Part shown: in pieces, positions 944 through 29,973 of the stretch
Position numbering within the stretch: position 1 is the first letter of the stretch
How the letters are laid out: each line of letters opens with the position of its first letter
NCBI GenBank assembly: GCA_021846565.1
Contig: JAJZWS010000028.1
Coordinates: 1-37,444, forward strand
Length of the DNA stretch: 37,444 bases
Direction: 5' to 3'
Origin: Bacillota bacterium
Lineage (GTDB): Bacteria; Bacillota; Sulfobacillia; Sulfobacillales; JAIMBI01
Translations under genes and position numbers: made by a program
Notes under the pieces: generated by a model
The model's database searches: none
What the model was told of the DNA's origin: nothing
Seen by the model: only the letters and a program-made list of their open reading frames with translations

Positions 944-987
944 AGCATCTCATACCCATTGACAGTTGTCGATGGGTATGAGATGCT
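944..987. promoter_or_regulatory. 44-bp near-palindromic arsR/arsM operator
   Basis: AGCATCTCATACCCAT at 944-959 is perfectly inverted at 972-987. Inside the 12-bp spacer GACA and TGTC are also symmetric, so the block is palindromic except at two base pairs. It fills the divergent gap between arsR (start 937, minus) and arsM (start 1025, plus), the expected place for ArsR to shut off both transcripts. Binding by this ArsR is inferred. Confidence 0.75.
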
Positions 988-2254: not shown

Positions 2255-2415
2255 TGGGTGTGACGAAGAGCCATGCCCGCCCCGTCCGACGACCGTCCGC
2301 ACTCCCAGGCCCAGTTCAAGACCCTCAGGCATAGGCCCAACTTGCCCGGATGCTTCCTCAGCCTCGTGGCGCGGCGATCGTTGCAACGAGGTTTCGACTG
2401 GGTACCACACAGTTC

Positions 2416-2676
2416 CCCATGCGGCTGAGCTGCACCCCGCCCCATGAAAAACAGGGCTCCCGGTCGTCCGTGGCGAAGAAGGAGCGGCTCCCGGGAGGAG
2501 GTCGTTTTCTCTGGGGTCCTGCGAGGCCGCTTAGCCGTTTGACCCGGAGCGCCGAGGGGACCTCGCCCGGTTGCGGCCCCTCGGGGCGAGCACGGAGCAG
2601 AATCCATCCTGATGGCGTTCAGCGCCGCCTACGCCCTTCACGTGAGTCGCGAGCGAGAAGGAAAGCCGGGAACCGG
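2416..2676 (+). ncRNA. Candidate bridge-RNA leader of IS110 copy A
   Basis: The 261 bp between the element's left end and the transposase start have no coding frame but are conserved in the second copy. A hairpin is formed by CCGAGGGG (2552-2559) and CCCCTCGG (2577-2584) with a 17-nt loop. In the other copy the stem has one mismatch and the loop differs at about five positions. CGGAGCAG at 2593-2600 repeats the element's right terminus. IS110-group elements encode their bridge RNA in exactly this 5' position. That this segment is transcribed and functions this way is inference. Confidence 0.4.
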
Positions 2677-3858
2677 ATGGAGGTCGTCTTGGCCCGGTGT
2701 GCCGGGCTCGATGGCCACCAGAAGACGGTGGTTGCGTGTGTCTTGGTCCGTCAAGGCCGCGACCGCCTCCGCGCCGTGCGGACGTTTGGCCCCACCACCC
2801 CGGAGGTGCTGGCCTTGCAGACCTGGTTGCCGGAGCACCACGTGACGCCTGTGGCGATGGAGTCCACCGAGAGCTCCGGGAAGCCCCTCTTCACCCCGCT
2901 GGAGAGCCGGTTCACCACCTGGCTCGTCAACCCCGCGGCCATCCAGGCAGTGCCGGGTCGCCAGACCGACGGGCAGGACGCCGAGGGGATCGCGGATCTC
3001 TGGCCACAGGGGCTCCTGCGGCCCCGCTTCATGCCCGACCGGGCCCAGCGGGAACTGCGGGAGCTGACCCACTACCGCAAGCGCCTCATCGAGGAGCGAG
3101 CGCGTGAGCCCAACCGGCTCCAACAGGTGTTGGAGGGCGCCCACAGTAAGCGCGCGTCGGTCCTGAGCGACGGGCGGGGGGTCTCCGGGACCCGGATCGC
3201 CGCGGCGCTCGCCGATCACGGACCCGGCGGCGCTGGCGGCGTGGACCGATGAGCGCGGGCGGGCGACCCCGACGGAGCTCGGGGCGGCCCTCACGGGGCC
3301 GAGGGGCGCCCAGCAGCGCTTCCTCTGGCAAGCACAGCTCCGGCACGTGGACGCCCTGGACACCCAGCTCCCGGCCTTGGATGCGGAGGAGGCGACCCGG
3401 CGGGTCCCTTTGGGGGCAACCCGGGAGCTCCGGGAGAGCCTCCCGGGGGTAAAGACTCGGGTGGCCGAGACCATCCTGGCGGCGGGGGGCCCGATGGTTG
3501 AGGATTTTCCGAGTGCCGCCGCGCGGGCGCAGGGGATCGGCCTCGTCCCGGGGAACCATGAGAGTGCCGGGCCCTCCGCGCGACTCTGGTGGAGGCGGCC
3601 ACCGGCGGGCCGCACGAAAGCGACCGACCTGGGGGCGCCGCATCGCCGGATGGTTTCCACCCAGGGGAAGAAACGGGCCGCCGTCCTCGGGGCGCACACC
3701 CTCGCCGCGGACATCTGGTATATCCTGCGCCGCCAGGAGCCGTATGCCGACCTCGGGGTGGACTCCTGGGACCGGCGGGACACCGACCGGGTCCGGCGGC
3801 AGGCCGTGAAACGCTTGGAAACCCTGGGGTGCGAGGTCACCTCACCCCCGCCTCCCAA
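2677..3858 (+). pseudogene. IS110 DEDD transposase, frameshifted (copy A)
   Basis: IS110-type recombinases carry an N-terminal RuvC-like DEDD domain and a C-terminal Ser-containing Transposase_20 domain. The N-terminus is intact from ATG 2677 (RCAGLDGHQKTVVACVLV; MESTESSGKPLF; GRQTDGQDAEGIADL). A one-base loss near 3220 shifts the frame: the natural DPAALAAWTDER continues in the next frame. Later motifs (LPGVKTRVAETI, NHESAG, QGKKRAAVLGAHTLAADI, KRLETLG) are present, but about 38 nt are missing after NHESAG relative to copy C, and the terminal stop is lost (CAA where copy C has TAA). It cannot make a full transposase. Confidence 0.85.
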
Positions 3859-4059
3859 CCAGCCGGCGGGGGCTGCCTGCGCCCGGCGGGCCCGGGCGGG
3901 CGTCAGCGTGGGGGGCGCGTCGTCTCTCGGGCGGTTGTTCGGAGCAGTTCTCCACGGCCCTGGCGGGCCACCACCAGGAATGAAAAGGCGGGCCGGCGAA
4001 TCTCGTCCCGGCACCTTGCGGAGGTCGTTGCCTCTGTGGGGCCTTTGAGCCCGAGGAGC

Positions 4060-5203
4060 AGGTTGACCGGCGCCCCGTGGAGGGCACCACCACCGCCGAG
4101 CGGATCGCGTTGCGGGACTAGCTGCCCACGGCGGGCGGCCAGGCTGTGGCGAGGGAGGCCACGGGCTCGTACGGGAAGCCCGTGGGGAATGTCTTGGAGG
4201 ACCCTGACCTGACGTTGCTGCTGGCCAATCCGCAGCGCATCACGGCCATTCCCGGGCGGAAGAGTGATGTGCGCGATGCGGAGTGGATCGCGGACCGGCT
4301 CTGCCATGGGCTGGTCCCCGCCAGTTATGTCCCGGACCGGGCGCAACGGGGGCTGCGCGAACTCACCCGCTACGGGACGAGCCTCACGCAAGACCGCGCC
4401 CGCGAGGGCAACCGGCTCGCCAAGGGCTTGGAAGGCGGCAATCTCAAGCTGGGCAGCGTGCTGACGGATATCACCGGCACGACGGGCCGGGCGATGCTCC
4501 GTGCCATCGCGAGGGGCGCGGACGATCCCGCGACCCGGCTGGCCTACCGGGTCGGACCGGTGAAAGCGTCGCCCGCCGCCTTCGCCGCGGCCCTGACGGG
4601 GATCGTGACGCCCCACCCGCGGAGGATGATCACGACGATCCTGGACGGGTCGAAAGTCTGGAGACCCGCCTGGCCGCCTTGGATCTGGCGATTGCCCGTC
4701 AGCTCGCGGCCACCGCCGCCCCCACGGCGCTCCTGCGGACCACCCCGGGGGTGGGGCCCCACGCCGCGGCGGTGATCGTCGCGGAGGTCGGGGGCCCCGT
4801 GGACGCCTTCCCCTCGGCCGCCCACCTGAGTGCCTGGGCCGGGCTCGCGCCCGGCCAACACGAGAGCGCGGGCCAACGCAAGCCGGTGCGGATCCCCCCG
4901 GGCCAGCGCCATCTCCGCACCGTCTTGGTCCAATGCGCGTGGGCCGCCGTCCGCCAACGCCCCACGTATTTGGCGGCCCAGTTCGCGCATCTGCAGCCCC
5001 GCCTCGGGAAGAAACGGGCCATTGTCGCCGTCGCGCATTCGCTGCGCGTGAGCCTGTACTATATGCTCCGCAATGGGGTGCCCTACGCCGACCTGGGGCC
5101 CGCCCCCTTCGCCCCCCGGGACGACGCGCGGGTCATGCGGCGCGCGCTGACCCAGCTCGAACGCCAGGGATATCAGGTGACGCTCACGCGCCCCGTCGCC
5201 TAA
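4060..5203 (+). pseudogene. Second, divergent IS110 transposase remnant
   Basis: A different IS110 lineage from the flanking copies. Visible in order are GTTTAERIALRD then an in-frame TAG (4119-4121); VAREATGSYGKPVGNVLED; PGRKSDVRDAEWIADRL; VPDRAQRGLRELTRY; a frameshift near 4640; and an undamaged C-terminal domain (LRTTPGVGPHAAAVIVAEVGG, GLAPGQHESAG, GKKRAIVAVAHSLRVSLYYML) ending at TAA 5201-5203. The first roughly 60 codons, including the first catalytic Asp, are missing; copy A ends about 110 bp upstream. It is therefore 5'-truncated, carries a stop and a frameshift, and is inactive. Confidence 0.85.
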
Positions 5204-5617
5204 CGGGGGTCCCTCAACCCCGGGAAAGGGCTTTGCGACCGTCTCTCCCTTGTCCTGCCCCGCTGCCCGTTTCCCGAAGGCATCTTTCGCGTCAGAACAT
5301 CGGCACCCGCCATCCAGGCCGCCATCACCAACGCTTCGCTACCTTCCCCGGCTGGGGGTGGCGGCTCATGATCCGGGGGCAGACCCGGCCGTGGCCAGCG
5401 ACCGTGGGATTCTCCTCCCCCATTCCGGCCAAACAGCGTGGGATTCTACACCAGTCCAGCGCCCACAGGTCGTACGCCCCAACTCGCCGGGGCATCCCTT
5501 GGCTGGAACCACCCCTCAAGAGACCGCACTATATCCATACGAAGAACCCTTCCATACGTCGGCACGGCTCCAGACGCCAAAGCGGCGCTGCGGTGAACGG
5601 GCGCCGCTGGCCGCCGG
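5204..5617. other. Intergenic DNA with possible integrase scrap
   Basis: About 410 bp without a credible gene. On the minus strand near 5380-5450 a frame reads IPRCLAGMGEENPTVAGHGRV, faintly like the MAxENPTWGYxRI motif of IS3-type integrases, but it is too short and degenerate to call. The right-hand part presumably contains the 5' control region of the isomerase gene. Confidence 0.3.
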
Positions 5618-28149: not shown

Positions 28150-28196
28150 GGCCGCCCCTCCTTGCCCATTCACTGCCCGTTCACTGTACACAATTG

Positions 28197-28452
28197 CCCA
28201 TGCGGCTGAGCTGCACCCCGCCCCATGAAAAACAGGGTTCAAGGTCATCGATGGCGAAGGAGGAGCGGCTGCCGTGAGGAGGTCGGTATCTCTGTGGTCT
28301 TGCGAGGCCGCGACACCGTTTGACCCGGAGCGCCGTGGGGAATTCGCCTAGTTGTGGCCCCTCGGGGCGAGCACGGAGCAGAATCCATCCTGATGGCGTG
28401 GGACGCCGCCTACGGCCTTCACGTGAGTAGCGCGGACGAAAGCAGGGAATCG
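28197..28452 (+). ncRNA. Candidate bridge-RNA leader of IS110 copy C
   Basis: Non-coding 5' part of copy C, colinear with the leader of copy A. The stem CCGTGGGG (28333-28340) and CCCCTCGG (28358-28365) has one mismatch compared with the perfect copy-A stem. The 17-nt loop (28341-28357) differs from copy A at about five positions, while the following 40 bases are nearly identical. CGGAGCAG at 28374-28381 again equals the element's right terminus. Position and pattern suit an IS110 bridge RNA; expression is unproven. Confidence 0.4.
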
Positions 28453-29667
28453 GATGGCGGTCGTATGCGCCCGGTGCGCCGGGCTCGATGGCCACCAGAA
28501 GACGGTGGTCGCCGGTGTCCTCGTGCGCCCGGGCCGGGACCCCCTCCGGGCCGTGCGGACGTTTGGCCCCACCACCCCGGAGGTGCTGGCCTTGCAGACC
28601 TGGTTACCGGAGCACCACGTGACGCCTGTGGCGATGGAGTCCACCGAGAGCTCCGAGAAGCCCCTCTTCACCCCGCTGGAGAGCCGGTTCACCACCTGGC
28701 TCGTCAACCCGGCGCCCATCCAGGCCGTGCCGGGTCGCCAGACCGACGGGCAGGACGCCGAGGGGATCGCGGATCTCTGGCCACAGGGGCTCCTGCGGCC
28801 CTGCTTCATGCCCGACCGGGCCCAGCGGGAACTGCGGGCACGGACCCGCTGCCGCAAGAGCCTCATCGAGGAACGGGCGCGCGAGCACAACCGCGTCCAA
28901 AAGGTCTTGGAGGGCGCCCACATCACGCTCCGGGCGGTCCTGAGCGACGGGCGGGGGGCGTCCGGGACCCGGATTCTCGCGGCGCTCGCCGACGAGTCAC
29001 GCACCCGGCGGCGCGGGCGGATGAGCGCGTGCACGCGACGTCGGCGGAGCTCGGGACGGCCCTTACGGGGCGGATGGCGGCGCACCCGCGCTGTTTCTGG
29101 CAACACCCGCTGCAGCATCTGGACGCCCTGGACACCCTGCTGCAGGCGTTGGATGCGGAGGGGACGACTCGGCGGGCCCCTTTGACGGCGACCCGGGAGC
29201 TCCGCGAGAGCCTCCCGGGGGTGAAGACCCGAGTGGCGGAAACCCTCCGGGCGGCGGGGGGCCCCACGGTGGCGGCTTTCCGGAGTCCCACGGCGCTGGC
29301 GCAGGGGATCGGCCGGGCCCCCGGGAATCATGAGAGCGCCGGCCAACGGGTATCCGGCCGCACCCTCCCCGGGACCCGCGCGCTCCGCGCGACCCTGGTG
29401 GAGGCGGCCACCGGTGGGCCGCACGCAAGCGACCTATCTGGGGGCGCAGTGTCGCCGGATGGTGCGCCCCCAGGGCAAGAAACGGGCCGCCGTCCTCGGG
29501 GCGCACACCCTCGCGGTGGACATCGGGTACCTCCTCACCCGCCACACCCCCTACGTGGATCTAGGGGGGACTCCTGGGACCGGCGGGACACCGACCAGGT
29601 GCGGCGCCACGCCGTGAAACGCTTGGAAACCCTGGGGTACGAGGTCACCCTCACCCCCGCCTCGTAA
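28453..29667 (+). pseudogene. IS110 DEDD transposase, frameshifted (copy C)
   Basis: N-terminal domain intact (RCAGLDGHQKTVVAGVLV; MESTESSEKPLF; GRQTDGQDAEGIADL; ERAREHNRVQKVLEGAH). Frame changes near 29000 (natural HPAARADERVHATSAELG continues in another frame), near 29410 (GRTQATYLGAQCRRMVRPQG in a third frame) and near 29565 (DSWDRRDTDQVRRHAVKRLE), ending at TAA 29665-29667. Copy C retains the C-terminal segment QRVSGRTLPGTRALRATLVEA that copy A has lost. At least three frameshifts make it non-functional. Confidence 0.85.
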
Positions 29668-29973
29668 CGGTCCGGCGGGGGGCGCCTGCGCCCGGAGGGC
29701 ACGGGCGGGCGTCAGCGTGGGGTGCGCGTCGTCTCCCGACCTGTTTTTCGGAGCAGAATAGCACGTTTCACGCTTTTTTCCGAAGATGGCAGGTACACGA
29801 CACCTCATCCTGGGTGTCCGCGTTCAGCGTGGAGATCCATAGCGACCTGCAGTATCGACAGAGCCGGTGCACGCGGTCGCGGAAGCCCGGGAGTTTCCAG
29901 AACCCATGGTACACTCCCTTTGGGGCGGTCAAAACCGGTCGATCTGTGCCGTGTGGGAAGAAGGAGACGTCCC

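What the first reader, a model, noticed from the sequence alone, without database searches (positions are those of the whole stretch)
2416..2676. IS110 leader looks like a bridge RNA with a variable loop
Both IS110 copies have about 260 bp of conserved non-coding sequence between the left end and the DEDD transposase start, the place where IS110-group elements encode a bridge RNA. A stem (2552-2559 with 2577-2584) is kept, but its 17-nt loop differs at about five positions between copies, whereas flanking bases are almost invariant. Loop-only divergence is what a retargeted guide would show. I could not match the loop bases cleanly to the present flanks, so retargeting is unproven. These elements come from a lineage with little sampling.
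Basis: partly seen in the sequence, partly recalled or inferred. Interest (0 to 1): 0.72.

Follow-up and report, generated by a model that had tools for sequence, protein, structure and literature searches.

The report
Mirror-order bridge RNA of IS110 elements
The stretch in front of two dead IS110 transposase genes encodes a guide ("bridge") RNA whose short target guide matches the DNA beside the element in dozens of related insertions, but the guide sits about 25 bases upstream of the loop that was flagged, and the guides appear in the opposite order from the well-studied IS621 RNA.

Summary
The leader is a bridge RNA, but the flagged loop is not the target guide. A covariance model built here finds the RNA at 2483-2604 and 28264-28385, and in a third IS110 remnant at 4010-4107. 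Across 82 non-redundant insertions, the 5 nt before the RNA's AG core guide match the 5 bp left of the element: 317/410 matches versus 135±9 in shuffled pairings; 51 distinct guides give 201/255 versus 82±7. In copy A this guide is 2531-2535. A left donor guide matches the element's right end (151/168 versus 113±5). Left guides lie on the 3' strand of their loops, the reverse of IS621 and ISEc21, although the RNA lies upstream of the transposase. The right target guide is only weakly supported. Both copies have frameshifted transposases sharing indels, so the lineage probably spread in trans. B still matches its site; A does not. Overall: a known kind of system with an apparently mirrored guide order, and with guides aimed at IS right ends (including A's own) and CRISPR repeats.

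The parts
2411..3947 (+). IS110 copy A: left end begins with core AG at 2411-2412; right end ..TTCGGAGC-AG ends at 3947; transposase (ATG 2677) broken by frameshifts and a 37-bp deletion
   Evidence: copy alignment and shared ends
2406..2410 (+). left target flank of copy A (CACAC), not part of the element
2483..2604 (+). bridge RNA of copy A as covered by covariance model R1 (86.8 bits, E 2.6e-20); true transcript ends unknown
2484..2503 (+). 5' arm of target-module basal stem (P1b about 2484-2491, P1a GGTC 2500-2503)
   Evidence: covarying helices 1 and 2
2504..2512 (+). candidate right target guide plus CU core guide on the 5' strand of the target loop (GTTTTCTCT)
   Evidence: weak: best of 149 windows, z 3.0, in the 34-copy set only; permutation P 0.03 to <=0.002
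2513..2530 (+). apical hairpin P2 of the target module
   Evidence: helix 3
2531..2535 (+). left target guide of copy A (TTAGC); does not match its present flank CACAC; same guide as intact relative L006, whose flank does match
2536..2539 (+). core guide (CG here, AG in most relatives) and 2 nt (TT) that equal left-end bases +3,+4: candidate handshake guide
   Evidence: match 0.97-0.99 vs 0.54-0.57 expected
2541..2552 (+). 3' arms of P1a (GACC 2541-2544) and P1b (GGAGCGC 2546-2552)
2556..2563 (+). candidate right donor guide (GGGGACCT, near-complement of left end AGTTCCCC); not established
   Evidence: sequence reading; family-wide scan inconclusive
2594..2600 (+). left donor guide GGAGCAG, identical to the right end GGAGCAG (3941-3947)
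28192..29756 (+). IS110 copy B: left end starts AATTGCCC (core AA), right end TTTTTCGGAGC-AG; transposase frameshifted
28264..28385 (+). bridge RNA of copy B (R1, 86.9 bits, E 2.5e-20)
28312..28316 (+). left target guide of copy B (GACAC), matching flank TACAC (28187-28191) at 4 of 5
28375..28381 (+). left donor guide of copy B (GGAGCAG), identical to its right end
   Evidence: coordinates read
3946..5297 (+). third IS110 remnant (C), directly abutting copy A's right end with one shared AG; its left end is AGTTCTCCACGG; N-terminal part of transposase missing; right boundary approximate
4010..4107 (+). bridge RNA remnant of C (R1, 28.6 bits, E 8.5e-6), donor half degraded
4055..4059 (+). left target guide of C (GGAGC, followed by AG), identical to copy A's right end (3941-3945 GGAGC, then AG)

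Best explanation
2483-2604 (and 28264-28385) encodes an IS110 bridge RNA. A covarying stem (P1) and hairpin (P2) enclose a target loop whose 3' strand reads [5-nt left target guide]-[AG core guide]-[2 nt equal to left-end bases +3,+4]; its 5' strand ends in CU and probably carries the right target guide. A second module (P3) is followed by a left donor guide identical to the element's right end. Shown by comparison: left target guide tracks the left flank; left donor guide tracks the right end; helices covary; single AG core at the junction. Inferred from IS621: an IS110 recombinase bound to this RNA pairs the left target guide with the bottom strand left of an AG, and the donor guides with the joined right end/left end of a circular intermediate, and exchanges strands at AG. 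Left guides on the 3' strands mean the order is right-then-left in the target module and, if a right donor guide lies upstream, in the donor module too: the mirror of IS621 and ISEc21. In the window the recombinase genes are dead, so A and B could only have moved recently with recombinase supplied in trans (inferred).
For: 82 insertions: 317/410 guide-flank matches vs 134.9+-9.2 permuted (max 172 in 10,000), 33 perfect vs 0.9; 51 distinct guides: 201/255 vs 82.0+-7.1; signal confined to positions -5..-1. Earlier set of 41 found with a different search: 142/164 vs 62.7+-5.8; in a scan of all RNA columns the four highest scores are the consecutive diagonal -4..-1. Left donor guide vs right end: 151/168 vs 113.3+-5.0, none of 20,000 shuffles as high. 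Helices: 90.2% paired vs 79.6+-1.0, 44 double changes vs 13.9+-2.7 (structure hand-drawn on these sequences); P1 cognate duplex energy -16.0 vs -11.3 kcal/mol non-cognate. Ends: identical copies diverge exactly after the right end; in L196 left flank + AG + right flank restores a CRISPR repeat present intact beside it. Both DEDD and Tnp domains present; IS621 is the best solved relative. Model R1 finds the RNA in 29/42 genomes of the order and 37/348 sampled from the phylum.
Against: No transcript, RNP or transposition data. The right target guide is weak: in-register match P 0.03 (all) or 0.009 (distinct RNAs); offset-tolerant P 0.002 or lower; best window z 3.0 among 149 in all 34 copies, but not the best when restricted to the 24 with good left guides. 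The right donor guide is not established. Copies are related, so permutation tests overstate independence somewhat. Copy A's guide does not match its flank. Both window copies are pseudogenes.
Confidence: 0.93

Rival explanations
1. One reading: 2552-2559/2577-2584 is the stem and its 17-nt loop is a retargeted target guide.
For: The five differences between A and B in that loop are real.
Against: The stem is mismatched in B and not conserved; it competes with the covarying hairpin P3. In the scan against left flanks the high scores are all at the other site. The region lies in the donor half, next to a donor guide that copies the right end.
Confidence: 0.03
2. The guide-flank match is trivial: the 5 bp belong to the element and travel with it, or the RNA region is a copy of its end.
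For: Identity (not complementarity) is what an internal repeat would also give; RNA bases after the AG do equal left-end bases +3,+4.
Against: Sequence-identical elements have different 5-bp flanks (L202 TAGAGT and L203 CACGGT; L195 CCTCAT and L194 AGCCTT), copies diverge exactly at AG on the right, and the L196 flanks rejoin to an intact CRISPR repeat with one AG.
Confidence: 0.03
3. The RNA works with IS621 polarity (left guide 5', right guide 3') and the helices drawn here are wrong, so that the 5-nt left guide is really the 5' strand of a loop whose 3' strand lies downstream.
For: The right target guide is weakly supported where the mirrored model puts it. IS621 and ISEc21 have that order (PMC11208160, PMC11187229).
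Against: P1 closes directly after the left guide in diverged groups with compensatory changes, leaving no 3' strand inside it; the left donor guide also lies 3' of its hairpin; no downstream window scores higher against right flanks in the full set.
Confidence: 0.18
4. For copy A only: its target loop was exchanged after insertion (gene conversion with an L006-like copy), rather than A having been inserted by a sibling's RNA acting in trans.
For: Both strands of A's target loop (GTTTT / TTAGC) are L006-type, while its site (CACAC-AG) is the kind that B- and L025-type loops (GGTAT / GACAC) match.
Against: Shared disabling indels across A, B and C7 at different sites make movement in trans likely anyway, and donor guides are shared among siblings, so trans use of RNA is equally possible.
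Confidence: 0.45

Closest known systems
IS621 bridge RNA (IS110 group; Durrant et al. 2024, PMC11208160; Hiraizumi et al. 2024, PMC11208158)
   Same: Upstream position in the left end, two modules (target then donor), left target and left donor guides that copy the top strand and include the core, short handshake-like bases beside the core, IS110 recombinase with RuvC-like DEDD and Tnp domains.
   Different: IS621 has left guides on the 5' strand and right guides on the 3' strand of each loop, core CT, and handshake bases after the right guides. Here left guides are on the 3' strand, core AG, and the handshake-like bases follow the left guide. The left target guide is about 5 nt plus core instead of 7 plus core.
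seekRNA of IS1111-type elements (ISEc11, ISKpn4, ISPa11; Siddiquee et al. 2024, PMC11187229)
   Same: Top-strand match lies 5' of the bottom-strand match, the order inferred here.
   Different: IS1111 elements carry the RNA downstream of the transposase and have 11-13 bp subterminal inverted repeats; here the RNA is upstream and no such repeats were noticed (not systematically tested).
seekRNA of ISEc21 (IS110 type; PMC11187229)
   Same: Upstream RNA; natural reprogramming between relatives already reported for this kind of element.
   Different: Guide order reported as bottom-strand match 5', top-strand match 3', opposite to that inferred here.

Membership tests
IS110 family element | DEDD RuvC-like domain (PF01548) and Tnp domain (PF02371) | tested here: met
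   PF01548 in copies A and B and remnant C, PF02371 in A and C; relatives' intact protein scores 217 bits against NF033542 (cut-off 140). Genes in the window are frameshifted.
IS110 group (not IS1111) | long non-coding region upstream of the transposase, short right end | tested here: met
   RNA lies between left end and transposase start in A, B and relatives
IS110 group (not IS1111) | placement with IS110 rather than IS1111 transposases in a tree | not tested
bridge RNA | left target guide pairs with left flank of the insertion | tested here: met
bridge RNA | right target guide pairs with right flank | tested here: inconclusive
   weak signal in the expected strand
bridge RNA | left donor guide matches the element's right end | tested here: met
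bridge RNA | right donor guide pairs with the element's left end | tested here: inconclusive
   no clean diagonal
bridge RNA | conserved secondary structure with target and donor modules | tested here: met
   (four helices with compensatory changes); closing stem of the donor module not identified
bridge RNA | RNA is expressed, binds the recombinase and is needed for transposition | not testable with these tools
   needs RNA sequencing and assays
IS621-type bridge RNA | left guides on the 5' strand of each loop | tested here: not met
   left target guide is followed directly by the 3' arm of P1; left donor guide lies 3' of P3
IS1111-type element | RNA downstream of the transposase | tested here: not met
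   RNA is upstream
IS1111-type element | subterminal inverted repeats of about 11-13 bp | not tested
   none seen by eye at the ends; no systematic search

The most novel reading that the evidence does not exclude
A widespread IS110 lineage (29 of 42 genomes of this order, 37 of 348 sampled in the phylum) carries bridge RNAs in mirror image: right guide first, left guide last with the handshake bases behind it, while the RNA stays upstream of the transposase. Its guides have been rewritten many times, including towards CRISPR repeats and the right ends of sibling elements, and copies with dead recombinase genes still moved in trans.
Probability: 0.55. Interest if true: 0.75.

Novelty: new variant of a known kind. 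Interest (0 to 1): 0.58.

Why it matters
Bridge RNAs are programmable recombination guides, and only a few have been worked out. A natural lineage with mirrored guide order, a short left guide and an AG core would show that the recombinase tolerates either polarity and would give new starting points for tools. The set of insertions with matching guides gives a natural record of retargeting, including insertions into CRISPR repeats and next to other IS copies. The window copies also suggest that defective elements with intact RNA and ends can be spread by a relative's recombinase.

Tried and rejected
Rfam at gathering and relaxed thresholds: nothing relevant. Folding single leaders: no better than shuffles. 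RNAalifold on a plain MAFFT alignment: almost no structure because of misaligned arms; replaced by a hand-drawn structure checked by pair counts. Complementarity (instead of identity) to the left flank: no coherent signal. Right-flank scan with 16 copies: nothing; with 34 copies: weak. Right donor guide by scan against left ends: no clean diagonal. More right ends by looser motif search: few additions, not used in the tests. Considered and rejected: that the 5 bp travel with the element (see rivals).

Full report
What is there. Window copies A (2411-3947) and B (28192-29756) are IS110 elements, 84% identical, with DEDD and Tnp domains. Both transposases are broken. Compared with the intact relative L006 (408 aa) in a same-genus genome, A, B and a third own-genome copy (C7) share a 2-bp and a 1-bp deletion, A and C7 also share a 5-bp deletion, and B and a same-genus copy (L025) share a 1-bp deletion. 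Since these copies sit at different sites, either the defective lineage spread in trans or the defects were shared by gene conversion. The genome assembly is incomplete, so an intact copy in this genome cannot be excluded.

Ends. Relatives in the same order share the left end AGTT[C/T]CCCATGC... and the right end TTTTC.GG..AG. Sequence-identical copies diverge exactly after the terminal AG. In one copy (L196) the left flank GTTTCAATTCCTCAT, one AG and the right flank GTACGCTGAAAAC rejoin to the CRISPR repeat that stands intact beside it. The element therefore lies between two AG core dinucleotides of which the target had one.

The target guide. I aligned the leaders of 41 copies and compared every RNA column with every flank position. 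The four highest scores are the four consecutive bases just before the RNA's AGUUUG, each equal to the corresponding base just left of the element (z 4.6 to 7.9; permutation 142/164 vs 62.7+-5.8). A covariance model, used to collect more copies, extended this to 82 non-redundant insertions: 317/410 matches over 5 nt vs 134.9+-9.2 permuted; with one copy per distinct guide, 201/255 vs 82.0+-7.1. Positions -6 and beyond show nothing. Related copies are not independent, so the exact significance is overstated, but the distinct-guide test has the same outcome. This is the left target guide of a bridge RNA.

In the window the guide is 2531-2535 in A and 28312-28316 in B. The leaders differ in 40 of 266 columns; 2531-2534 is one of two unbroken four-base runs of substitutions. 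B's guide (GACAC) matches its flank (TACAC) at 4 of 5. A's guide (TTAGC) does not match its flank (CACAC), but equals that of L006, whose flank matches it; the opposite strand of A's loop is also L006-type (GTTTT), whereas B and L025 have GGTAT with GACAC. So A was either inserted with a sibling's RNA or had its loop exchanged afterwards. The core guide is CG in both A and B instead of AG.

The stem 2552-2559/2577-2584 is mismatched in B and, over 21 relatives, pairs at 69.5% against 66.6+-1.7% in shuffled columns, with two central pairs mostly broken. Its 3' arm overlaps a covarying hairpin P3. The loop falls between the target module and P3, in the donor half. Just downstream, the left donor guide (2594-2600, GGAGCAG) is identical to the right end of the element; across 21 distinct guide/end pairs the match is 151/168 vs 113.3+-5.0 permuted. 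A right donor guide at 2556-2563 is possible but not shown.

Structure and order. A hand-drawn structure of four helices gives 90.2% paired cells vs 79.6+-1.0 and 44 double changes vs 13.9+-2.7, with a sharp drop when partners are slid; since I drew it on these sequences, the percentage paired leans towards it, the double changes less so. P1 duplexes are stronger with their own partner than with those of diverged copies (-16.0 vs -11.3 kcal/mol). P1 closes directly after the left target guide, and the left donor guide follows P3. Both left guides thus lie on the 3' side. In IS621 and ISEc21 they lie on the 5' side (PMC11208160, PMC11187229); IS1111-type elements have the order inferred here but carry the RNA downstream (PMC11187229). 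The two bases after the AG in the target loop equal left-end bases +3,+4 in 97-99% of 76 distinct RNAs vs 54-57% expected, which recalls the handshake guides of IS621 (PMC11208158), there attached to the right guide. The change between AGTT, AGAC, AGTC and AGAT types happened few times, so this is a small number of events.

Weak point. A right target guide should sit on the 5' strand of the target loop, which ends in CU. Right flanks of 34 copies match it only weakly (P 0.03 in register, 0.009 for distinct RNAs, 0.002 or lower with free offset). In an unbiased scan it is the best of 149 windows in the full set (z 3.0), but not in the 24 copies with good left guides. The mirrored order is therefore likely, not proven.

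Third element. R1 finds another RNA at 4010-4107, in an IS110 remnant whose left end starts on the AG that ends copy A. Its guide GGAGC-AG equals A's right end GGAGC-AG. The simplest reading is that C was inserted against A's right end by its own guide.

How it most likely works. By analogy with IS621, recombinase and RNA recognise the joined ends of a circular element with the donor module and a target with the target module, and exchange strands at AG. Only the comparative guide matches, helices and ends are shown here; expression, protein binding and catalysis are inferred.

Novelty. Bridge RNAs and natural reprogramming are published. Rfam 15 has no match. The combination of upstream RNA and reversed guide order is not in the text of the papers read; six further RNAs are shown there in figures that I could not see, so prior depiction cannot be excluded.

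Noticed in passing
L188, L191, L193, L195, L196 (genomes G189, G298, G221): Copies of the same RNA family sit inside CRISPR repeats. L196 lies in an array of 30-nt repeats spaced 65-67 bp; G221 has four junctions GTTTCAATTCCTCATAG-AC, G298 two and G189 one. In G189 the guide CTTAT-AG fits the repeat; in G221 the fit is partial.
   Followed up: partly
window 3941-3947 with 4055-4061; L125, L226, L028, L229, L207, L184: Several guides match left flanks that look like right ends of other IS110 copies (TTTTC.....-AG), as in remnant C beside copy A. This would build head-to-tail tandems (one search lists 15 of 82 flanks with a loose T-rich match; not all are real right ends).
   Followed up: partly
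window 28192-28199 with 28338-28345: Copy B's left end starts AATTGCCC instead of AGTTCCCC and its RNA reads GGGGAATT where copy A has GGGGACCT: a possible paired change of left end and right donor guide, one case only.
   Followed up: no
G000 C22 end and C57 start (L005, L004): Two contigs of the same genome break 167 bp inside the left end of identical copies, so at least one more, probably recent, copy is collapsed in the assembly.
   Followed up: no
L053 / L226 region (G020 C129, G038 C57): L053's right end is followed at once by an AGTTCCGCATGCCGCC left end, another tandem junction.
   Followed up: no
window 944-987: A 44-bp stretch matches its own reverse complement at 91% (imperfect palindrome) inside the open reading frame 1016-1864 upstream region.
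   Followed up: no
L058, L074, L188, L222: A -10-like sequence (TATGAT, TATAAT, TATACT) stands just upstream of the modelled RNA in several relatives; not seen in the window copies.
   Followed up: no
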